A DNA stretch of 7,810 nucleotides from assembly GCA_027019885.1 (NCBI GenBank), contig JALUWC010000440.1, positions 1 through 7,810 of the forward strand, read 5' to 3'. The DNA is from Geoglobus sp. (GTDB taxonomy: Archaea; Halobacteriota; Archaeoglobi; Archaeoglobales; Archaeoglobaceae). Positions 1 through 7,810 of the stretch are shown here, in pieces (the stretch's first letter is position 1; each line of letters opens with the position of its first letter). Position numbers and translations under genes: made by a program. The notes beneath the pieces were generated by a model. The model was not told the origin of the DNA, made no database searches, and saw only the letters and a program-made list of their open reading frames with translations.

Positions 1-68
1 ATTCTTTCAACTATCTTTAATATTATAATACTGTCTTCAATAGCCTTTTTTAAAAAATTCAAACTCAT
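1..68 (-). CDS. 5' end of an unidentified gene, cut by the window edge
   Basis: Reading leftwards from an ATG at 68-66, 22 sense codons stay open to the window edge, giving MSLNFLKKAIEDSIIILKIV followed by E and R. The peptide has the look of an amphipathic helix. The start is preceded by a short AGGGT and, about 30 bases upstream, by a TATA-like TTTTTAAA (96-105 region), the right distance for an archaeal promoter with a very short leader. Too little is visible to name a function. It points the same way as the long gene array but is separated from it by about 170 bases and appears to have its own promoter. A chance open frame in AT-rich DNA is a real alternative. Confidence 0.4.
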   Translation of the reverse strand, partial: MSLNFLKKAIEDSIIILKIVER

Positions 69-94
69 ACCCTATTTTAAAAAGCTGAAAAAGG

Positions 95-106
95 CCTTTA
101 AAAAGT
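95..106 (-). promoter_or_regulatory. Candidate TATA box for the gene at the left edge
   Basis: On the minus strand an AT-rich CTTTTTAAAG lies about 30 bases before the ATG at 68. A start of transcription about 25 bases downstream would leave a leader of only a few bases. A second TTTTTAAAA (near 76-84) is too close to the ATG to serve the same gene. Judged by eye only. Confidence 0.3.
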
Positions 107-177
107 GCCCATCTCAGCCATCCAGCCAACCTGCAAGCTGCAAATCCCAGCAGTATTCAATTAATTCTTAGTATATA

Positions 178-193
178 GGGGGAGGGAGGGGGG
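178..193 (+). other. G-run with possible G-quadruplex potential
   Basis: The plus strand reads five G, A, three G, A, six G. The rest of the noncoding stretch 69-236 holds a small inverted repeat, CCATAT (198-203) with ATATGG (214-219), separated by 10 bases, just downstream of the nucleotidyltransferase stop. On the minus strand, the transcribed direction, the run is C-rich, so it is not a normal archaeal T-rich terminator. No RNA gene or tRNA fragment is seen here. Confidence 0.35.
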
Positions 194-236
194 TTACCCA
201 TATACTTAACAACATATGGATAAGGAGTGGAGCGGG

Positions 237-887
237 TCAATATTTCTTTACTTCCTCTCTCACCTTTCTGACATAACGTCTAACAGCTCTGATTAATCTT
301 TTAAGCCTGTGATTTGGTAGTGTTATGTTCAGCTTGTCATCTCTTGCAAGCCGATAGTAGTCGTAATATTCTGGCTTTATTCCAATCTTTTTCAGCTCTT
401 CGATGAAACCTTTCTTGGTCATTTTTTCTTTCCTTATGAGGCACTTTATGATGTATGCCTGCCTTGCTCTGAGAATGCAGGAGTATATGATCGTACTTGT
501 TGCTTCTTCTCCGATTTCGTTGAGTAAACCTTCATTTATCTCGAAAATTTTGAGGGCTTCATTGATTTCTCTCAGAAAATCTTCCTTTCTTGGTTCGGGT
601 ATCTCAGGCAGGGTTCCATAGAGAAGGACTGCTTCTTTGAGCATTACAATTGTTGACGGGTAAAGCTTTATGGTTTCAGCAATACCGTTTACTGTGGTGA
701 TGGTTGGATTGAGTTCCTTCAGTTCTTCTTTTATAGATTCTTTAATTTCAGGATTGTCGATGATGACCATTATGTCGACATCAGATAAAGAGTCCTCCTC
801 ACCTCTGGCGAAAGAGCCATAGAGCAGAATAGCCTTAACACCTTCCAGCTTCTCCACATTTCTGATTATGTCCGATTGGATTACCAT
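237..887 (-). CDS. Nucleotidyltransferase fused to a HEPN-like helical domain
   Basis: A 216-aa protein. Residues about 1-95 form a minimal nucleotidyltransferase (MNT, pol beta superfamily) domain: the signature GSFARG (24-29) is followed by SDVDIMV with the two metal-binding aspartates D36 and D38. The stretch ending LKEAVLLYG (83-91) is usual for the archaeal members. No clear third carboxylate is visible. Residues about 105-215 are helical and resemble the HEPN domains commonly fused to or paired with MNT domains, but I do not find a canonical RX4-6H RNase motif; the nearest piece is RLARDDK (179-185). In the family, MNT-HEPN pairs act as toxin-antitoxin modules in which the MNT enzyme transfers nucleotides to the HEPN toxin; fused forms are less understood. 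A GAGGAG site lies 9 bases before the ATG, and the start overlaps the end of the preceding frame as ATGGTAA. It is the last gene of the array. Stabilising or defence roles are inference. Confidence 0.85.
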   Translation of the reverse strand: MVIQSDIIRNVEKLEGVKAILLYGSFARGEEDSLSDVDIMVIIDNPEIKESIKEELKELNPTITTVNGIAETIKLYPSTIVMLKEAVLLYGTLPEIPEPRKEDFLREINEALKIFEINEGLLNEIGEEATSTIIYSCILRARQAYIIKCLIRKEKMTKKGFIEELKKIGIKPEYYDYYRLARDDKLNITLPNHRLKRLIRAVRRYVRKVREEVKKY

Positions 888-1199
888 TTTTCAAGTCTCC
901 TCTTTTTCTTTTCGTAATCTCTCCAGAGCTGGGCTATTTCCTTATCATAGTATTCTGCAAGGAATTTATCACCTTTTTCCTCTGCCGTCCTTCTCTTTTC
1001 TTTATGTTCTTGAATTACATCAGTAGACGATAATTCTCAGCTTATACCTTTTACTCAAGCGTGAGATTGCCTCGATTGTTACATAGGATGCAGTGTTCGC
1101 TTTACAGATCTGCTTAGCCAATTCTTCAGCTTCTAAGAGTGTGAATCGTCTTTTTTCTTTCAGGATCTCCATCAGGGTTTCAATTTTCTCAGCCTTCAT
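881..1199 (-). pseudogene. Small gene interrupted by an apparent +1 frameshift
   Basis: From the ATG at 1199-1197, which overlaps the previous stop as ATGA, a 59-aa frame runs to a TGA at 1022-1020. The next frame over is then open from 1036 to a TAA at 883-881 that overlaps the start of the nucleotidyltransferase gene (ATGGTAA). This second frame (51 codons, K/E-rich, ending in a charged helix) contains no ATG, GTG or TTG, so it could not be translated on its own. Skipping one base near 1037 joins the two into a protein of 105 aa, with KRYKL running into ELSSTDVIQEHKEK. Overlaps at both outer ends match the spacing of every other gene in the array, which argues that 881-1199 was one gene. 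The N-terminal half looks like a small helical, possibly winged-helix, domain; the C-terminal half is probably a long charged helix. The family is not recognised. Sequencing error, real decay and programmed frameshifting all fit. Confidence 0.6.
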
Positions 1200-1537
1200 T
1201 TATCTCTCAGATCCGCATACACTCCAATGTTCTCTCGCTCAATAATTATCCTCACAGGGATCTTTTTGACGTCGGAGAGCAAATGGTTGTAACTTCTGGG
1301 AAGTCTAAACCTGAGAGTAACACCTCCTGAACCACTTCTCCACAGTTTGCCTTCTTTTCTTGTTATCATCTCTCTGTTTTTTGTGATGATGATTTCAATG
1401 GATGTGCTATTGCTAATTGAATAGGAGACTCTTGCTGGGAGATCAACAAGAATATCATATCTGCTGGTTTTTCGGTTTATGACTATCCTTCCTTCTTTCC
1501 TGATCTCCAATGGAATCTCACCCAATTCAGTATGCAA
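1196..1537 (-). CDS. Unidentified 113-aa beta-rich protein, TTG start
   Basis: I do not recognise the family. The protein has no signal peptide or membrane segment and alternates charged and hydrophobic residues in a way that suggests beta strands throughout, for example RYDILVDL, TSIEIIITK, GVTLRFRLP and VRIIIERENIGVY. The stretch KLWRSGSGGVTLRFRLP faintly recalls AbrB-like swapped-hairpin proteins, which is not enough for a call. The start is a TTG directly after the TAG of the upstream gene, supported by GAGGTG 6 bases ahead. Its TGA overlaps the ATG of the next gene (ATGA), so translational coupling on both sides is likely. No cysteines or obvious catalytic motif. Confidence 0.7.
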   Translation of the reverse strand: MHTELGEIPLEIRKEGRIVINRKTSRYDILVDLPARVSYSISNSTSIEIIITKNREMITRKEGKLWRSGSGGVTLRFRLPRSYNHLLSDVKKIPVRIIIERENIGVYADLRDK

Positions 1538-1747
1538 CTACACCACCTCTCTCATATCATCATTCTCATTCTCCTTTCCTCTCACCATCCCGATAAGTTT
1601 CATAGAAACTTCCAAGACTTTTTCAGGCTCAACCCCATCAAGCCTTACCTCCACCTTTACTCCTCCACCATCCTCATGATTCGAGAATCCAATTGAGATG
1701 TATCTCACTGGAAACCCATAACTCTCCAATTCCTCAGCATCAGCCAT
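1538..1747 (-). CDS. Unidentified 69-aa protein
   Basis: A small acidic protein beginning MADAEELESYGFPV. I do not recognise it. A possible strand pair (VRYISIGFSN and GVKVEVRLDG) is followed by a helix (EPEKVLEVSMKLIGMV) and a charged tail. I prefer the ATG at 1747 to an in-frame GTG at 1783: the ATG has GAGGTG exactly 6 bases ahead, sits 10 bases after the upstream stop, and avoids a 26-base overlap with the upstream gene, while the GTG has only a weak site. Its stop is followed at once by the TTG of the next gene. Confidence 0.65.
   Translation of the reverse strand: MADAEELESYGFPVRYISIGFSNHEDGGGVKVEVRLDGVEPEKVLEVSMKLIGMVRGKENENDDMREVV
1544..1549 (-). promoter_or_regulatory. Ribosome binding site deciding the TTG start at 1537
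   Basis: GAGGTG lies 6 bases before TTG, inside the last codons of the upstream gene. It matches the anti-Shine-Dalgarno end of archaeal 16S rRNA and is the main reason for accepting a TTG start directly abutting the previous stop. Confidence 0.65.
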
Positions 1748-1753
1748 GCTCAC

Positions 1754-1759
1754 CACCTC
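1754..1759 (-). promoter_or_regulatory. Ribosome binding site deciding the ATG start at 1747
   Basis: GAGGTG, again 6 bases from the start codon, overlaps the TGA stop of the upstream gene. The same sequence and spacing recur before the TTG at 1537, which supports the shorter form of the 69-aa protein over the GTG-initiated longer one. Confidence 0.65.
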
Positions 1760-2174
1760 AATACCACAAAACTGGATTTTCACCTCTCATAACCTTCATC
1801 TTAGCATAATAGCGAAACACATCCACCACCCTTAGCTTTGAAGCAACAAGATAAATTGTGCTGTGATCAGGCTCTTTCTTGATGTTGAAGCTCAGCTCTT
1901 TCAAATACTCCCAGTTATCTCCTGCAAACTCCTGAATCTGTCTGAAACTCCACTCCCTTTTAAGTCCATACAGAATCAGGGAGATTATAAGGAACCGGTT
2001 GTATGATTTCCTCCCAGCTCTCCTAATGGGTTTCACCAAGGGTGGTGGTAGTGGAACAGATCTCACAGCCTCAAACATCTCAATGATCTCTTGGACTTCT
2101 TCAGAGATTTTCTCAGAATCACTCCAACCATGTTTAAAAATTGGAGAGTCACTCAAAGCTTTCCTCTCCTTCAT
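1758..2174 (-). CDS. Orphan transposase-type N-terminal domain protein (DUF772-like)
   Basis: A 138-aa protein whose residues about 52-119 resemble the N-terminal domain of IS5/IS1182-like DDE transposases (DUF772 type). It has a basic entry (RRAGRKSYNR), a hydrophobic helix (FLIISLILYGL), the S-x-R segment (WSFRQIQEF) and the characteristic PDHSTI motif (102-107). In transposases this domain precedes the catalytic core; here the frame ends about 30 residues after PDHSTI and no DDE core follows, because the next gene is unrelated. The frame is open and tightly packed in the array, so it looks like a retained stand-alone domain rather than debris. Residues 1-50 are acidic and proline-rich. DNA binding is a reasonable inference. 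The start is uncertain: ATG at 2174 has GAGGAGG 10 bases ahead but overlaps the upstream gene by 26 bases; an in-frame TTG at 2156 has GGAGAGG 6 bases ahead and only 8 bases of overlap. Confidence 0.75.
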   Translation of the reverse strand: MKERKALSDSPIFKHGWSDSEKISEEVQEIIEMFEAVRSVPLPPPLVKPIRRAGRKSYNRFLIISLILYGLKREWSFRQIQEFAGDNWEYLKELSFNIKKEPDHSTIYLVASKLRVVDVFRYYAKMKVMRGENPVLWY

Positions 2175-2349
2175 AAGGTTTGAGCCTCCTCATCACAGTC
2201 CACTTTGAAACATCATAACCCATCTGCTGGAGTTTCCAAGCTATGAACTCATAGCTGTATCCCTTGGCTCTCAGTTCAAGAGCTAAAGAAAGAGGGAAGG
2301 GTTTTGGCTTCCTTCCAACTCCTTCCCTGATGTAAAGAACCTCAGCCAC
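2149..2349 (-). CDS. Small helix-turn-helix DNA-binding protein
   Basis: A 66-aa protein that is almost entirely one helix-turn-helix domain of the resolvase/transposase kind. A basic arm with GRKPKPFP (12-19) is followed by helices at about 20-29 (LSLALELRAK), 32-42 (SYEFIAWKLQQ) and a recognition helix at about 48-57 (SKWTVMRRLK). The pattern of helix, G-Y-S turn, helix, then G-Y-D-V-S before a T-V-x-R-R-L helix is typical. It starts with GTG at 2349, 4 bases after the upstream stop, with GGTGA 5 bases ahead. A DNA-binding role is well supported. Whether it is a repressor of the element, a partner of the replication protein or a helper of the transposase-like neighbour cannot be read from the sequence. 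Confidence 0.75.
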   Translation of the reverse strand: MAEVLYIREGVGRKPKPFPLSLALELRAKGYSYEFIAWKLQQMGYDVSKWTVMRRLKPYEGEESFE

Positions 2350-2353
2350 ATTC

Positions 2354-2572
2354 TCACCCTGTCATGTCAAAGACTTCCTCTTCAGGCTCTTTCTGTTTGA
2401 CTTCTCTAACCCAGAAAACTCCAACTTCCTTCCATGTGCCATTGTCCTTGATCATCAGTCTGAATGATGGCTGGCTCTCTTTCTCCTTCTTATCATTCTT
2501 GAACAGATAGGCTTCCTTTCTTCCTAAAATTCCGAAATCAATAAAGCCAGAGAGGTATTTCTTACCTGCCAT
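2354..2572 (-). CDS. Unidentified 72-aa protein, possibly a single small beta domain
   Basis: Not recognised with confidence. The likely start is the ATG at 2572, whose GAGG lies just upstream and which overlaps the end of the four-cysteine gene by 11 bases; an ATG at 2629 in the same frame would give 91 aa but a much larger overlap. The N-terminal part (YLSGFIDFGILGRKEAYLFKN) suggests strands, followed by a lysine/glutamate turn, then PSFRLMIKDNG and KEVGVFWVREVK. The overall shape, a charged loop, a P-x-F-R strand and an E-x-G-x-x-W strand, recalls the small DUF736-like proteins of plasmids, but that is a weak resemblance. The C-terminus is acidic (EPEEEVFDMTG). Confidence 0.65.
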   Translation of the reverse strand: MAGKKYLSGFIDFGILGRKEAYLFKNDKKEKESQPSFRLMIKDNGTWKEVGVFWVREVKQKEPEEEVFDMTG

Positions 2573-2786
2573 CTTCCTCAACCTCCCCGAAAAGTCTGAC
2601 AACAGGAACTCCCTCAACAAAAGCATCAAGCCTTATGGCAATCCTTGAAACCGCACATATCCTGTCAGAGAGGAACCACATGCACACCTCTTTCAGACAC
2701 TTCCTTTTCATCAGAGGACAGAACCTGGGAATTTCCAGATCACCCATTTTAAGATCTGGGACCTCCAAAACTTCCAGTTTTACCAC
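2562..2786 (-). CDS. Small four-cysteine, probably metal-binding protein
   Basis: A 74-aa protein with four cysteines spaced C23-x6-C30-x4-C35-x8-C44, in FCPLMKRKC, LKEVCMWFL and DRICAVSRIA. The arrangement CP..., C-x4-C-x-W and C-A is one I associate with small plasmid and phage proteins that probably bind zinc or an iron-sulfur cluster; I cannot name a family. The N-terminal 20 residues are acidic-hydrophobic and the C-terminal part (VVRLFGEVEEDG) looks like a strand. The start is GTG at 2786 within GAGGTGGTAA, so it overlaps the upstream stop by 7 bases; the upstream GGAGGAGAGGAG provides the binding site. A second in-frame ATG at codon 14 would leave all four cysteines intact. Confidence 0.7.
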   Translation of the reverse strand: MVKLEVLEVPDLKMGDLEIPRFCPLMKRKCLKEVCMWFLSDRICAVSRIAIRLDAFVEGVPVVRLFGEVEEDGR

Positions 2787-3202
2787 CTCCTCTCCTCCTT
2801 ATCTAAGGGAGGAGCCTGAAGGATGAACTTCCTGTAAATCCAGTCTCCCAGCTCTTCAACACTTCCAGAAAACACAGGGAGAAGCTGATCAGCCCTCAGA
2901 AAATGATCGGAATGAACCATCTGTTTTGGATCGAACTCATAGAGATTAACCAGCTCAGCTCTCCTCTCTATGTAATAAAGGGGGACTCTCAGAGCTTTGG
3001 CAACCTTCTTGAGAGTAACGGCCTGATAACCTCTTATCTTCAGCTTTCCATTCTTCTCCTCGAAAATCGCTCTGATTCTTGATCCTACCTCTAAGATGGT
3101 ATCAATATTTGTTACCACAACTTTATCAGTTAATTCTCTGTAAGGTTTCAAAGCCTCCCAGAGTGTGTTCTCGATATACTGACCACAATGAGGACATTTC
3201 AT
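2780..3202 (-). CDS. 140-aa protein with N-terminal CPHC motif, partner of the replication gene
   Basis: The protein opens MKCPHCGQYI, half a zinc ribbon, but contains no other cysteine, so a complete metal site would need histidines or dimerisation. Residues about 12-60 look mixed alpha/beta. Residues about 62-84 (VTLKKVAKALRVPLYYIERRAEL) could be a helix-turn-helix, with K-K-V-A-K-A-L and a following helix. The C-terminal third is helical. I do not recognise a family. Its ATG overlaps the stop of the primase-helicase gene (ATGA), and GAGGAGGTG lies 8 bases upstream inside that gene, so the two are probably translationally coupled. An accessory role in replication or DNA binding is inference from this position. 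Confidence 0.7.
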   Translation of the reverse strand: MKCPHCGQYIENTLWEALKPYRELTDKVVVTNIDTILEVGSRIRAIFEEKNGKLKIRGYQAVTLKKVAKALRVPLYYIERRAELVNLYEFDPKQMVHSDHFLRADQLLPVFSGSVEELGDWIYRKFILQAPPLDKEERRW

Positions 3203-5874
3203 AAGCCCAACACCTCCTCATAATGCTCAAATTCATTAAAATCCTCATGAATCTCCTCAGAATCTTCCTGAACTTCAGAACCTTCCAGGAATCTTATGAA
3301 TTCATCCAAATTTACTTTTACACCTTTGGAAAATCTCCCGTTTGTTCTGATAGACTTATACTCCCACCCAAACCTTTCAGCTAAGGATTTGAGAGAGTCC
3401 ACAGCCAAACCATCCAGAACCTTCAAAACAGAATTCGTGATGACCACATCATCTCCTTTCAGAGAAGCCCAGGGAACGAAATTCCCTTCCAGCAAAGCCT
3501 TAACCCTGTGTTTCAGCTCTGAAGTGTAAACGGAATTACCTTCTATCAATGCTTCAACCTTAGAAATGTGTCTGGAGTATCTCTGATTGAGATCATCCAG
3601 AATTCTGGCTCTTATCTCCTCATTGATGATCTCAGTAATCTCCTCAAGACTCTCTCCCTCATGAAGTTCATCAATCCAGGAAGGGACTTCCATTCCAGTA
3701 TACTCATAAGCCTCTCTAAGGAGGGATGTTGAAACTTCTTTCCAGTCCTTTTTCAGCAATTCTGGACTTCCAGCTATTCTCTGGAAGACAAAATAACCCA
3801 AGAACCTCAGGTCGTAAATTCTTGGAAGAATTCCAGATTCAAACTGTCTTGCTTTCTTCTCCGAAATTCTGTCAGAGAGAGTGAAAAGAATCCCTATGAA
3901 TCTCCTCAAAAGAGCATCATCTGATGGGTAGGTTTTGTTTGTGGTAAAGATCATTGGGCTTAATGCTGGCTCTTCAACATAAACACCTTGGACGTATCTA
4001 CCTCTTGCAAACAGGGTTTCGATTGATGATTTCAGGACTTCTCTCATAGAGTCCTTGGCGAGAACATCGGCAACCTCATTAATCAGGATGGGGAACGTGC
4101 TTTCAGAAACAACCTTTCCAAATCTCGGTATTGTATCAATGTGGGAACCTCCCTTTTCCTCTGGTGGAAGGTTCCACATCGCCCTGATTATCTTCCCTAA
4201 GGTGGATTTGCCTGTTGAAGCAGAACCATGGAGTAAAAGCCAAGGGAAGTGGATCCCATAAGTCCCCCTGATCTGCTTTATTGCATAGCTGAAAGGTGCC
4301 AGAATTCCCCATTTGATTATGGTTGTGAATCTCTCAGACAGATGCTGATACCATTTCTCTCTCAGCTCATTGAGGAGAATAAGGGAAGTTTTCAGATCTT
4401 CCCTGGTGAATTCTTCAGGTTCCCATTTAACAGCTTTAATATTTCCCTCAATGAAGTAAAAACCAGGTTTTTCAAGCTCTCTCCTGATTTCTGCCTTCCC
4501 ATTCCTGATGAACGCAATTATAAGGGAATTTAAGGCATCCTCAATGAGTCTCTTGTGTTTCACAACAGCCTCAGCCCTTAACCTCTGAGCTATGGTATCA
4601 ACATCAGCAGGACCTATAACTTTCTTTAACAGCCCATCAAATTCTATCTCGAACTTTCTCACACCCCCAAGGGGATCCTCAAAAACAACAACTCTGACAG
4701 GACAGCACTCAGCTATTAATTCCCTGTAAACAATTCCTCCATTCTTGTGATCCTCATAAGCTCTGGCAATTATCCCCTTTTTGGGATTGGCAACATAATA
4801 TAACTTCCTGGAAAAATCAATCAGGCTGAAGATTGAATCCCTGAAGGGTGAAGCTTTCCCAAGCTTCTCCTCAAGTCTCCTTATCAGTTCTAAGGATTTT
4901 TCCTCTCCCAATTGCCTTTCAGCTATTTCCTGTAGCCCTGATTTCCCTTTAAGCTCTTCCTCTGTTGGAGGATTACCCTTAAGTCCGTATGTCCGATCAA
5001 GGACGTAAAACCTGAGATCCTTCTCCTCATCCCCCTCAGCCAGAATCTCAACAACTCTTTTGGCAGAGCTGTAATCAATCCCTGCCTTTCTCAGCCATCC
5101 ACTAAGAAAGAGGATAATGTAATTCCTGTATCCCTGCCTATATATTGGTTTAATCAGATTGACAATCTCCAGAATTTTACTCTCTGAGAGTATCTCACCA
5201 TCCTTGGATGTCGAAAAATCTTTAGACTTCCTGGGAGTGGGATCCTGTTCTAAGGATCTTTCGAACCTGCTTTCAAGTCCTTCATTCCTCTCCAGAATTC
5301 TAAGGAGGGTGGAATATTCCTCCCATGTCAGCTCTGCAATTCTCTCAGGCTTATTGACAAACCTGTAAAGCTTTCCTGAGGGATGAGGAGAGGGAGGACA
5401 GACAACGAAACCACCTTCAGCCCTGATGTCTATGCCTTCTCTGATTCCGATCCTGTTGTGGAAAAGTTTTGGATCCGGATCCTTCACCCTGAAATAATAA
5501 TGGAATCCCTTACCTGTTTCAACCACCCAGGTATTGATGAACTTCTCATAAAGCTTGGGACTTGCTTCATACAGCTCTCCCAGAAATTCCCCAGCCATTT
5601 CCTTAGAATCAAAATCTATAACAGCCAGATTTCCAGAAACTCTCCCTGTTATTATGGCAATCCCCAGCTTATGACCGTTTCTTATTGGCTCAAACTGTTC
5701 AGGGTTTGAGAACCAGCTATTAACCGCTTCTAAGGTGGGGGGAGAATGCTGGTATTTCTTCCAATCAACAAGAGCAGGTTTTCTGGATTTACCATTGGGT
5801 AACTTTATCAGAGCAACCGGGATTATGCTGAATCCTTCTTGGAGGTATCGTTTAGCAGATTCTAACAAAGACAT
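3199..5874 (-). CDS. Prim-Pol primase/polymerase fused to an AAA+ helicase (plasmid/virus replication protein)
   Basis: An 891-aa replication protein. Residues about 5-185 are a bifunctional primase-polymerase (Prim-Pol) domain: AVIDFDS with metal ligands D87 and D89, GKGFHYYF with H125, and GIDIRAEGG (D149) followed by PPSPHPSGKLY (160-170), which together form the nucleotide site. Residues about 246-297 (GYRNYIILFLSGWLRKAGI onward to DRTYG) match a PriCT-type helical domain. After a middle region of unclear fold comes an AAA+/SF3-like ATPase at about 540-670: Walker A GSASTGKST (550-558), Walker B-like FPILINE (594-600), sensor-1 FTTN (643-646) and the arginine pair R657-R658. The C-terminal 780-862 could be a winged helix; the last 30 residues are acidic. 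The layout parallels pRN1-type Rep proteins, which prime, extend and unwind at the element's origin. The Walker B has N599 where Asp is usual, with E600 kept. ATG has GGAG 6 bases ahead. First gene of the array. Confidence 0.92.
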   Translation of the reverse strand: MSLLESAKRYLQEGFSIIPVALIKLPNGKSRKPALVDWKKYQHSPPTLEAVNSWFSNPEQFEPIRNGHKLGIAIITGRVSGNLAVIDFDSKEMAGEFLGELYEASPKLYEKFINTWVVETGKGFHYYFRVKDPDPKLFHNRIGIREGIDIRAEGGFVVCPPSPHPSGKLYRFVNKPERIAELTWEEYSTLLRILERNEGLESRFERSLEQDPTPRKSKDFSTSKDGEILSESKILEIVNLIKPIYRQGYRNYIILFLSGWLRKAGIDYSSAKRVVEILAEGDEEKDLRFYVLDRTYGLKGNPPTEEELKGKSGLQEIAERQLGEEKSLELIRRLEEKLGKASPFRDSIFSLIDFSRKLYYVANPKKGIIARAYEDHKNGGIVYRELIAECCPVRVVVFEDPLGGVRKFEIEFDGLLKKVIGPADVDTIAQRLRAEAVVKHKRLIEDALNSLIIAFIRNGKAEIRRELEKPGFYFIEGNIKAVKWEPEEFTREDLKTSLILLNELREKWYQHLSERFTTIIKWGILAPFSYAIKQIRGTYGIHFPWLLLHGSASTGKSTLGKIIRAMWNLPPEEKGGSHIDTIPRFGKVVSESTFPILINEVADVLAKDSMREVLKSSIETLFARGRYVQGVYVEEPALSPMIFTTNKTYPSDDALLRRFIGILFTLSDRISEKKARQFESGILPRIYDLRFLGYFVFQRIAGSPELLKKDWKEVSTSLLREAYEYTGMEVPSWIDELHEGESLEEITEIINEEIRARILDDLNQRYSRHISKVEALIEGNSVYTSELKHRVKALLEGNFVPWASLKGDDVVITNSVLKVLDGLAVDSLKSLAERFGWEYKSIRTNGRFSKGVKVNLDEFIRFLEGSEVQEDSEEIHEDFNEFEHYEEVLGL

Positions 5875-5989
5875 TTTTATCTCCTCTCATGAAAATGCAG
5901 AACAAATATCCAAGAGGACAGGGAGATTTTGTAAGAAAATGACCACAGAAGTGATCAAAGTCTCTGTTGGTGCAGAATTTCGGAATTTT

Positions 5990-5999
5990 GATATATTTT
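5990..5999 (-). promoter_or_regulatory. Candidate TATA box for the long gene array
   Basis: On the minus strand AAAATATATC lies about 120 bases before the primase-helicase ATG, in the 172-base gap that follows the ribbon-helix-helix gene. Just downstream is an imperfect palindrome AATTTCGGAATT (plus strand, about 5977-5988), a possible operator. It implies a leader of roughly 90 bases, longer than usual for archaea. Read-through from the ribbon-helix-helix promoter is an alternative. No convincing gene was found in 5875-6046. Confidence 0.3.
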
Positions 6000-6046
6000 G
6001 AGGTTCTAACTCTCCTTAGGGCTGTGTGGGCGCTGGAAAGCATTTC

Positions 6047-6253
6047 TTATCCCTCCGATTTAATTTTTTCAAAATCAACACCTAAGAACATGGCATAATG
6101 TTCTATTGCCCTTCTGACAATTTCAGAGGCTGATTTGTGGGCAATAGGCTTTGAGTATTCTCTATTTAGGATTTTCTCAATTATCTTGGTGTGTTCAGGA
6201 TAAACTGTAACGTTCAGCTGAATCATTCCGTAATCTCTTGGTGTGCCGACCAC
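6047..6253 (-). CDS. Ribbon-helix-helix DNA-binding regulator
   Basis: A 68-aa protein with the ribbon-helix-helix plan. A DNA-contacting strand at about 11-17 (IQLNVTV) is followed by helix A at about 19-31 (PEHTKIIEKILN) and, after a short insert, helix B at about 42-57 (ASEIVRRAIEHYAMFL). Proteins of this fold dimerise through the strand, which enters the major groove of palindromic operators, and act as repressors, plasmid copy-number regulators or antitoxins. The start is GTG at 6253, with GAGGTG 7 bases ahead; the internal ATG at codon 10 has no binding site and would leave no residues before the strand. It is divergent from the winged-helix gene across a palindrome it may bind, which would make it autoregulatory. 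No toxin gene is adjacent, so a simple regulator is more likely than an antitoxin. Confidence 0.75.
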   Translation of the reverse strand: MVGTPRDYGMIQLNVTVYPEHTKIIEKILNREYSKPIAHKSASEIVRRAIEHYAMFLGVDFEKIKSEG

Positions 6254-6346: not shown

Positions 6347-7147
6347 ATGGAAAAGAATATCAGTGAATCAAAGAGAAAGATTCTAAATTTGATTTTTATA
6401 AAGGAGAGAGACTGGCAAGAATTAAAAAATGAAACAGGTCTTTCAGATCCTGTTTTAGCAAAACATATAAGAGATCTCATCAAATTAGGATTAATAACTG
6501 AGGAAATAAACCCAAAAGACCGCAGAAAGAAAATCTACAAAATTCGACACAAAGAATTACCTACTGCCGTCCTCGTTGATGCTCTTAGTATTTACATTTT
6601 ATATGAACTTTCGAACGAAATTAAGAATTTAGATATTTCAGGAGAGGGAGGGGATGAAATCGCTAAAAGAATCGGAAAGTATTACGCACTCTACAGCTTG
6701 GATGATAGGGGAAAAGAAGCCATTTTAAAAGCGCTCGATTATCTGGCAACTGGTTGGGACTATATTCTTGAAAAATGCATAGATAAAGAACACTATACAA
6801 GATTCGAAAAAGACTTTCCTAAAGAGAGGAAAGAGTTACTGGATAAGGCCACAAAAGCAGTTATAGAGATCTATGAAGGCTACAATATTTACAGATGGAT
6901 TTTGGATAACCCGGAAAAATTCCGAGAGATTGCAGAAAAAAAGGGATTGGGTAAAGAAGCCACCGAAAACATTCTAAAGAGGGTAGGGGGGGTATCTCAA
7001 AATTATGAAAAAGTTTTAACTGTTTTAAGAGAAAAAAACCCGTTTTTCAGTTCTATTGTCTTATCAAAGCTTGAAGAAAAGTATGAATTGACTGAGGATA
7101 AAATTATTAAAATTCTTGATAAAATATTATCAGAATCAAATCAATAA
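6347..7147 (+). CDS. Winged-helix transcriptional regulator with a helical C-terminal domain
   Basis: A 266-aa protein, the only intact plus-strand gene found. Residues about 8-67 are an ArsR/MarR-like winged helix: helix 1 SKRKILNLIF, then DWQELKNETGL, recognition helix DPVLAKHIRDLIKLGL (34-49), and a wing TEEINPKDRRKKIYKI. The remaining 200 residues are predicted helical, with no recognised ligand or effector motif; two Y-rich segments (YYALYSL and YEGYNIYRW) stand out. It lies between the palindromic promoter and the repeat region proposed as origin, so it may control the element's replication or switch to excision; this is inference from position. GGTGGT directly precedes the ATG. The gene is visibly richer in A and T (AAA, ATT, GAA codons) than the minus-strand array, which suggests a different history. 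A small inverted repeat GTATG-CTAA-CATAC (7157-7170) follows the stop. Confidence 0.85.
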   Translation: MEKNISESKRKILNLIFIKERDWQELKNETGLSDPVLAKHIRDLIKLGLITEEINPKDRRKKIYKIRHKELPTAVLVDALSIYILYELSNEIKNLDISGEGGDEIAKRIGKYYALYSLDDRGKEAILKALDYLATGWDYILEKCIDKEHYTRFEKDFPKERKELLDKATKAVIEIYEGYNIYRWILDNPEKFREIAEKKGLGKEATENILKRVGGVSQNYEKVLTVLREKNPFFSSIVLSKLEEKYELTEDKIIKILDKILSESNQ

Positions 7148-7187: not shown

Positions 7188-7417
7188 TGTGTCCTGCGTG
7201 TCCTGACATGGTCATTTTTCAGGTCACGCCTCTGAGAGCTTATTTTCTTGAAAAAAGCTTTCTCCTCCATTTTTCTAAGGGTGTGTCCTGGCCTATATAG
7301 ATGCACTCCTTATTTTTTTCTGGCAACTTTACGAGATCTCAGGACACACGGACACATGGACACACAAACAACACAAAATTTTCAAGACACTTAAGACACA
7401 AGGACACAAAGACACAA
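7188..7417. repeat. Iteron-like GGACACA repeats, candidate replication origin
   Basis: The 355-base gap 7148-7502 has no convincing gene but carries many copies of one short motif. On the plus strand GGACACA stands at 7342, 7350 and 7358 with exact 8-bp spacing, and degenerate copies with GACAC at 7386, 7395, 7403 and 7411 continue at 9, 8 and 8 bp. In the opposite orientation TGTGTCC or CGTGTCC occurs at 7188, 7197 and 7282. GTGTGTCCTG (7281-7290) and CAGGACACAC (7340-7349) form a perfect 10-bp inverted repeat around a stretch that includes CCTATATAG and a T-rich run, and GAGATCTC (7333-7340) abuts the tandem copies. An AT-rich segment follows at 7417-7431. Tandem short repeats beside an AT-rich unwinding segment are typical of iteron origins bound by plasmid or viral replication proteins. 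A cluster of regulator operators is the main alternative. Confidence 0.6.
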
Positions 7418-7597
7418 AAATAATTTTTTTCCTCCATCCTTAGAAAATGTAATCTCTCAGCTTCCGCTAACTTTTTTTAGCTAATACTTCCAATATATGT
7501 ATATGAGTCCAATTGCCCCAGTTAAGCAAAAAATAACCCTGAGTGTGGATAAAAATCTGGTTCAGGAAGCTAAGGAAATGGGGATAAACCTGTCTGC

Positions 7598-7605
7598 TTT
7601 TTTTT
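7598..7605 (+). other. Run of eight T at the frame break
   Basis: The homopolymer lies exactly where the two halves of the ribbon-helix-helix frame fall out of phase; seven T would restore one frame. It may be a sequencing or replication slip, or a site of transcriptional slippage. Confidence 0.55.
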
Positions 7606-7665
7606 GAAATCAAACTCAGGGAATACCTCAGCCTTGTAAAAAATGGACTCACACACGATAACGTA

Positions 7666-7739
7666 TGGGGCCGCCGAGACTTGAACTCGGGTCACGGGCT
7701 CCCAAAGCCCGAAGGATAACCAGGCTACCCTACGGCCCC
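7666..7739 (-). tRNA. tRNA-Pro (anticodon TGG)
   Basis: Reading the minus strand, a complete cloverleaf can be folded by hand. The acceptor stem GGGGCCG (7739-7733) pairs with CGGCCCC (7673-7667) and is followed by discriminator A (7666). The D arm is GGGTAGCCTGGTTATCC. The anticodon stem CGGGC/GCCCG holds the loop TTTGGGA, with anticodon TGG reading proline codons CCN/CCA. The T arm is CCGAG, TTCAAGT, CTCGG. No intron is present, and CCA is not encoded (the bases after the discriminator are TACG). The gene is intact, and its 3' end faces the mobile element, the usual arrangement when an integrase uses the 3' part of a tRNA as attachment site. Confidence 0.95.
7667..7716. other. Probable attachment site within the 3' part of tRNA-Pro
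   Basis: Inferred, not observed. The integrase-like frame passes from 7664 through the T arm and anticodon region of the tRNA and meets a stop in the D-arm sequence (7717-7719). If the frame was open in the free element, the shared att core should lie within the T arm to anticodon arm. The second copy would be at the left border, outside this window; no copy was found in 1-236. Confidence 0.4.
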
Positions 7740-7761
7740 TGGCTTGAGCAAAACAGTTGGG

Positions 7762-7771
7762 TTTAAAAAAT
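7762..7771 (-). promoter_or_regulatory. TATA box of the tRNA-Pro gene
   Basis: On the minus strand a TTTTTTAAAC stretch is centred about 27 bases before the first tRNA nucleotide (7739), the standard archaeal spacing. Confidence 0.6.
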
Positions 7772-7810
7772 CTGCGATAAACTTAGTTTTGTATGAAAAA
7801 TGGTAAGCTG

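What the first reader, a model, noticed from the sequence alone, without database searches (positions are those of the whole stretch)
7503..7739. Integrase N-terminal fragment reading into tRNA-Pro marks the right border of an integrated element
A ribbon-helix-helix frame continues, apart from one break in a T run, into the antisense strand of an intact tRNA-Pro(TGG) gene, and the tRNA 3' end faces the replication genes. This combination is the footprint of an SSV-type integrase split at attP. It explains why a Prim-Pol operon, an origin-like repeat region and paired regulators sit beside a tRNA, and predicts a left border with int(C) and a partial tRNA-Pro.
Basis: partly seen in the sequence, partly recalled or inferred. 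Interest (0 to 1): 0.75.

Follow-up and report, generated by a model that had tools for sequence, protein, structure and literature searches.

The report
Self-split archaeal integrase at tRNA-Pro
A short DNA-binding gene that runs into the reverse strand of a proline tRNA gene is likely the front half of an integrating enzyme which a mobile element would have cut in two by inserting itself; complete relatives in other archaea show both halves, and their cutting domain does not match the family of the known self-splitting viral enzymes.

Summary
A CcdA-like ribbon-helix-helix (RHH) frame (7503-7604), broken once at a T run, continues (7606-7719) 51 coding bases into the antisense of tRNA-Pro(TGG) (7666-7739). 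The window is a whole contig; its own left border is not assembled. Relatives supply it. A same-genus complete genome (G025) carries a syntenic 9.8-kb element with RHH int(N) at tRNA-Arg on the right and a partial tRNA-Arg fused to int(C) on the left. G008 (JAPDIT010000045.1) has five of the window's genes next to int(C) fused to a partial tRNA-Pro(TGG), in the frame of the window's second piece. Of the 72 best RHH matches in 57 genomes of the order, 59 face an intact tRNA gene within 150 nt; 53 read into it. New: the int(C) of these relatives (family A) matches no PF16795, the catalytic domain of SSV-type integrases (0 of 13), and the RHH stands where SSV integrases have PF07935. A second Archaeoglobi set pairs a similar RHH with PF16795. 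So two catalytic families share one kind of N-module, with the tRNA-derived att at the seam. Mechanism known; protein family a variant.

The parts
7666..7739 (-). intact tRNA-Pro(TGG), target gene; 3' end faces the element
   Evidence: ARAGORN
7503..7604 (+). int(N) piece 1: RHH (CcdA-like) module, 34 aa
   Evidence: 85% identical to G025 int(N)
7598..7605 (+). run of eight T where the frame breaks (stop TGA 7605-7607)
7606..7719 (+). int(N) piece 2: rest of the RHH module, linker and 51 coding bases of tRNA antisense, stop at 7717-7719
   Evidence: same tRNA frame as the int(C) of G008
7666..7709 (.). predicted att core (tRNA 3' half to the anticodon loop)
   Evidence: inferred from 42-45 nt direct repeats of four complete relatives
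7740..7810 (.). host flank (5' side of the tRNA); with the tRNA 95% identical to contig C179 of the same bin and 99% to G029
7338..7423 (+). iteron-like GGACACA repeats, about 9-nt period, origin-like; inverted copies at 7188-7205 and 7281-7290
6347..7147 (+). winged-HTH protein, possible iteron binder (inferred)
6047..6253 (-). small regulator, weak RHH_1 match (E 0.061)
   Evidence: 84% identical in G025
3199..5874 (-). Prim-Pol replication protein, 891 aa; a P-loop-like GSASTGKST in its C-terminal half by eye
   Evidence: PF09250 E 1.9e-26; 82% identical in G025
1758..3202 (-). small-gene operon (o2780, o2562, o2354, o2149, o1758), homologues in the G025 and/or G008 elements
237..1783 (-). 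left genes: nucleotidyltransferase (PF01909) and small ORFs, no match in the G025 or G008 elements; element or host side not settled

Best explanation
The stretch 7503-7719 is likely the N-terminal half, int(N), of a self-splitting integrase, and with the intact tRNA-Pro(TGG) it would mark the right border of an integrated plasmid- or virus-like element that likely fills most of the window. In the free circle the integrase gene is predicted to read RHH module, then the antisense of the tRNA 3' half (the att site), then the catalytic domain (seen as one open frame in the relatives L283 and G017). Recombination at the chromosomal tRNA would split the gene: int(N) stays beside the rebuilt tRNA, int(C) goes to the far end behind a partial tRNA (both borders seen in four relatives). 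Inferred: the RHH half binds DNA and holds the multimer, the catalytic half alone is weak or silent, so the element is trapped until an intact integrase arrives. From the relatives with the same genes, the missing int(C) is predicted to be of family A, a tyrosine recombinase outside PF16795, lying roughly 0.6-2.3 kb left of the window if the element is as long as theirs.
For: Frame and tRNA geometry. G025: window 2185-6210 is 74-81% and 7464-7739 77.6% identical in DNA and in the same order; its far end is a partial tRNA-Arg fused in frame to int(C), 9.8 kb away. G008: homologues of Prim-Pol (cut by the contig end), o2780, o2354, o2149 and o1758, then int(C) fused to partial tRNA-Pro(TGG) (40 of 42 bases as in the window's tRNA) in the frame WGRRDLNSGH, as in the window. 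G020: a 9.9-kb element at tRNA-Pro(TGG) with both borders, N and C in one tRNA frame. RHH-tRNA adjacency 59 of 72, 53 of 59 read in, 15 tRNA isotypes. A second RHH of the same bin reads into tRNA-Thr. Full-length single frames (stop to stop): L283 (family A), G017 (family B). Similarity around tRNA-Pro(TGG) begins within 7 nt of the tRNA 3' end in 20 of 21 pairs of seven sites. The family-A model has a tyrosine-recombinase fold.
Against: The window's own int(C) and partial tRNA-Pro are not seen: the contig ends first, and the clearest other int(C) of the bin, C359, sits at a tRNA-Val-like fragment. The int(N) frame is broken (real decay or homopolymer error, not decidable here). Window 1-2148 has no counterpart in the G025 element, 1-1757 none in G008 either. 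In G004 and G021:C44 RHH and family-A int(C) stand side by side across a partial tRNA but not in one frame. Recombination is not tested for any family-A enzyme. No true empty site was shown: left flanks differ at nearly every tRNA-Pro(TGG) site compared (G025 and G026 share about 92 nt).
Confidence: 0.92

Rival explanations
1. A CcdA/RHH antitoxin or regulator gene whose frame runs into the tRNA by chance.
For: Pfam's name for the match is CcdA, a post-segregation antitoxin. A few of the 72 RHH matches show no tRNA at all (G014, G026:1179881, G055:C15).
Against: 59 of 72 relatives face a tRNA, 53 of those read 38 nt or more into it; RHH, tRNA segment and catalytic domain form one frame in L283 and G017; no toxin-like ORF follows in the window.
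Confidence: 0.02
2. The border is real, but the missing int(C) is of the classical PF16795 (SSV) family, as in Archaeoglobi family B.
For: RHH also pairs with PF16795 in G017, and RHH modules of three family-A loci are 50-53% identical to that of G017.
Against: The four elements that share genes with the window and show an int(C), namely G025, G008, G026 and G020, have family A.
Confidence: 0.09
3. The int(N) is a leftover of an older insertion at the same tRNA, and the Prim-Pol genes belong to another element beside it.
For: The frame is broken; two insertions at one tRNA are seen in G017 and suspected in G026; the left genes differ from G025.
Against: G025 has the same order from Prim-Pol through regulators and repeats to int(N) at 74-81% DNA identity, inside one pair of att repeats.
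Confidence: 0.06

Closest known systems
SSV-type (suicidal, type I) integrases of fuselloviruses
   Same: att is a tRNA 3' half inside the integrase gene, gene split on integration (review PMC8371274: sections 29-31, section 9 part 1 and passages read; SSV1 record X07234 marks a 44-base integration site inside ORF D-335).
   Different: N-domain is PF07935 in 5 of 5 scanned, no RHH family at E<=1; catalytic domain PF16795 in 5 of 5, in 0 of 13 family-A rows. RHH profile against the SSV N-domains: hhalign probability 0.1.
pT26-2-like and pTN3-like suicidal integrases (Thermococcales; pT26-2 type also listed for Archaeoglobales)
   Same: Self-splitting at tRNA genes with wide target range (14 tRNA genes reported; PMC8371274).
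   Different: The review assigns them PF16795 and a single origin; family A lacks it. Their N-domains were not compared here; the key paper PMC7253208 is not held.
Split integrase of ArcVen-P3 and integrases of Archaeoglobus pleomorphic (pro)viruses
   Same: Archaeoglobi elements at tRNA genes; family B matches BK065154 (53%) and BK065155 (31%) (passages of PMC4158269 and PMC10919331 read).
   Different: The family-A full-length query L283 has no match in the phage or plasmid collections. PMC10919331 says Archaeoglobus and Geoglobus viruses have at least two non-orthologous integrase groups; whether one is family A was not tested.
Archaeal XerA and lambda-type tyrosine recombinases
   Different: Not self-splitting; no RHH module (recalled).

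Membership tests
Self-splitting (SSV-type in mechanism) integrase | int(N) frame enters the 3' end of an intact tRNA gene, antisense | tested here: met
   one frame break at 7598-7605
Self-splitting (SSV-type in mechanism) integrase | int(C) behind a partial copy of the same tRNA at the other border | tested here: inconclusive
   window contig ends; no second tRNA-Pro(TGG) fragment found in the bin; met in G025, G020, G019, G026 and, one border, G008
Self-splitting (SSV-type in mechanism) integrase | whole gene as one frame across the tRNA segment when unsplit | tested here: met
   in relatives only: L283 family A, G017 family B, G026 junction; not in one frame in G004
SSV/pTN3/pT26-2 protein family | catalytic domain PF16795 | tested here: not met
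   0 of 13 family-A rows at E<=0.1; the window's own int(C) is not available
SSV integrase (fuselloviral) | N-domain PF07935 | tested here: not met
   window piece 1 and the C516 relative match CcdA best and no PF07935 at E<=1; PF07935 in 5 of 5 viral integrases
Tyrosine recombinase superfamily | fold and catalytic residues (Arg, Lys, Arg, His, Tyr) | tested here: met
   for relatives: fold; invariant R166, K198, R264, H288, Y298 in A2; their roles are assigned from recall, and the usual first His of the second box is Ser or Gly here
CcdA antitoxin | adjacent toxin gene | tested here: not met
   no ORF of 50 aa or more starts between 7607 and the contig end; upstream is the repeat region; the host side beyond 7810 was not seen

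The most novel reading that the evidence does not exclude
A second catalytic lineage of self-splitting integrases exists in Archaeoglobi and allies: a tyrosine recombinase outside PF16795 has the tRNA att inside its own gene and shares its RHH front half with the PF16795 lineage. The att is the seam: tandem or successive insertions at one tRNA join int(N) of one element to int(C) of another in frame, so the splitting reaction itself builds chimeric integrases with new target tRNAs. This contradicts a single origin tied to PF16795.
Probability: 0.55. Interest if true: 0.72.

Novelty: new variant of a known kind. Interest (0 to 1): 0.6.

Why it matters
[quoted passage not shown] Family A shows the same design with another catalytic family and a shared kind of DNA-binding module, so the question of how such enzymes change target tRNA becomes testable by comparing halves joined at the att seam. 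It also gives a simple genome signature (RHH frame into an antisense tRNA) for borders that are easily missed: a search of 5.8 billion proteins with the short int(N) of G025 returned only two proteins, both RHH plus tRNA antisense (that search needs shared 5-residue words).

Full report
1. Observation. The window is contig C440 of a 574-contig bin (2.77 Mb, 8.75% contamination). tRNA-Pro(TGG) lies at 7666-7739 on the minus strand. The RHH frame starts at 7503, stops at a run of eight T (7598-7605), and goes on in the next frame from 7606 to 7716 with the tRNA read antisense as WGRRDLNSGHGLPKPEG. The 34-aa first piece matches PF07362 at E 6e-7.

2. Not a chance overlap. In the same bin a second RHH, 79% identical in DNA over 70 nt, reads unbroken 60 nt into tRNA-Thr. 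A profile of 11 RHH pieces without tRNA letters was run on 57 genomes of the order; 40 of 57 match at E<=0.001. I examined the 72 best rows (E<=5.6e-9) and not the weaker ones. 59 of 72 have an intact tRNA gene on the opposite strand within 150 nt (gap 0-61 nt), in 28 genomes; 53 of the 59 keep the frame open at least 38 nt into it; 6 of 59, the window included, are broken. Without the 11 seed loci it is 48 of 61. The tRNAs are of 15 isotypes. Of the other 13, some are contig ends or RHH joined to partial tRNAs, three are RHH-catalytic fusions without a tRNA part (G038:C45, G015:735889, G038:C44), and three show nothing (G014, G026:1179881, G055:C15). In 392 genomes of the phylum, 34 match at E<=1e-8: 29 in the order (own genome included), two more in the class, three elsewhere.

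3. The other half. In G025, complete and of the same genus, the tRNA-Arg 3' half is repeated 9.8 kb to the left, where it opens a frame of 360 aa: partial tRNA, then a tyrosine recombinase, int(C). The window matches this element over 2185-6210 at 74-81% DNA identity, in the same order, and over 7464-7739 at 77.6%; proteins: Prim-Pol 82%, o2780 89%, small regulator 84%, int(N) piece 85%, but the wHTH only 38% over 117 residues. The int(C) protein query finds a match in 29 of 57 genomes at E<=0.01. Of 30 fetched loci, 11 match at 45% or more from within the first 31 residues; 10 of these 11 show a tRNA 3' half just upstream, some seen by eye because the motif scan missed them, and L130 shows none.

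4. The same tRNA. G020, complete, has a 9.9-kb element at tRNA-Pro(TGG) with both borders, both halves in a third frame, VGPPRFELGS. Four family-A elements with both borders span 8304, 9131, 9802 and 9905 bases; their att repeats are 42, 44 and 45 identical bases (G025, G020, G019) and 43 of 45 (G026), ending in the anticodon loop. The window reaches 7665 bases left of its tRNA, so the missing border is expected roughly 0.6-2.3 kb further left, more if the left genes are extra.

5. The site. Seven tRNA-Pro(TGG) sites were compared (C179 of the bin, G025-G029, G020). Similarity begins within 7 nt of the tRNA 3' end and extends to its 5' side in 20 of 21 pairs; G025 and G026 share about 92 nt more. 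The 5' side is alike over 1.4 kb or more in C179, G025, G026, G028 and G029, interrupted in G027 and short in G020. G029 is 99% identical to the window over tRNA and 5' flank. This fits an integration hotspot, but no ancestral empty site was shown.

6. Which family. Thirteen family-A rows (8 close, 5 distant) give 0 matches to PF16795 at E<=0.1, weak PF00589 in 6 of 13 (best 3.4e-6), PHROG_1 integrase in 11 of 13, XerD of NCBIfam in one (8e-7), and no PDB sequence match. Family B (6 rows) matches PF16795 (1e-44 and 2e-58 in the two scanned) and the SSV1 integrase structures at 2e-17. Both carry the RHH: L283 (Ca. Mnemosynella, family A) and G017 (family B) read RHH, tRNA segment and catalytic domain in one stop-to-stop frame. 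RHH modules of three family-A loci and of G017 are 50-53% identical, whereas the catalytic domains show no BLASTP match at 1e-3 and hhalign probability 9.6. Five fuselloviral integrases have PF07935 and PF16795 and no RHH. The family-A model (pLDDT 81.6; RHH and linker poor) has a tyrosine-recombinase fold; SSV1 Int is neither the best match nor excluded. Distant relatives occur in Methanoregula and other euryarchaeal MAGs, a few with tRNA-like letters upstream (L296, L299, L304).

7. Tandem insertions. In G017 two copies of 8723 bases, 100% identical, stand in tandem at tRNA-Lys, and the middle junction holds an intact integrase frame; an assembly effect cannot be excluded. In G026 an RHH unlike the element's own int(N) (41% against 69% identity to the G020 RHH) is fused in frame, across a partial tRNA-Val, to a family-A int(C) (408-aa frame), which is what a chimera made at the att seam would look like; no second int(C) or tRNA-Val copy was found beyond it. 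In G004 and G021:C44 RHH and int(C) also adjoin, but not in one frame. The review proposes chimeras by homologous recombination between integrated elements and notes tandem integration (PMC8371274, section 31 and passages); making chimeras by site-specific tandem insertion, across catalytic families, is my inference.

8. Verdict. Shown: int(N)-like frame at an intact tRNA-Pro; synteny with a two-border element; int(C) with partial tRNA-Pro beside five of the window's genes in a relative; absence of PF16795 in family A. Inferred: the window's own left border, its catalytic family, the role of the RHH, and trapping of the element.

Noticed in passing
7188-7423; L114:11900-12197; L268:2442-2533; L272:9963-10034: Iteron-like arrays sit upstream of int(N): between the wHTH gene and int(N) in the window (GGACACA, about 9 nt), G025 (GGAACA, 8 nt) and G026 (TTGGACACA, 9 nt), and just upstream of int(N) in G019 (TGACAAAAA, 9 nt; its wHTH was not looked for); G020 shows only a two-copy repeat. 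The window's wHTH is closer to that of G026 (58% over 69 aa) than of G025 (38%), as is its iteron, so the wHTH may be the iteron-binding initiator.
   Followed up: partly
L267 (G017:C8) 86-17607: Two identical 8.7-kb family-B elements in tandem at tRNA-Lys; the middle junction holds an intact integrase frame.
   Followed up: partly
L268 (G026) 9425-10591: Possible natural chimera: a foreign-looking RHH fused across a partial tRNA-Val to a family-A int(C).
   Followed up: partly
L277 (G000:C534) 5521-5766: In the window's own bin an RHH frame crosses a tRNA 3' half (read by eye as tRNA-Glu) and continues open into non-tRNA sequence at the contig end: an unsplit integrase of unknown catalytic family.
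   Followed up: partly
L145 (G000:C359) 1874-2628: Decayed family-A int(C) with an internal deletion behind a tRNA-Val-like fragment: left border of another, old insertion in the same bin.
   Followed up: partly
L253, L254, L255: Full-length RHH-catalytic integrases without a tRNA motif between the halves (319-329 aa; PF16795 scanned in L254), perhaps a non-splitting state.
   Followed up: partly
L025 (G000:C179) 3727-3871: A second tRNA-Pro(TGG) site with a 95% identical 5' flank in the same bin, which suggests that the bin holds two related strains or species.
   Followed up: partly
int(N) loci: All three reading frames of the tRNA antisense are used as the linker in different integrases (for example GFEPG, RDLNPG, IRTG).
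   Followed up: no
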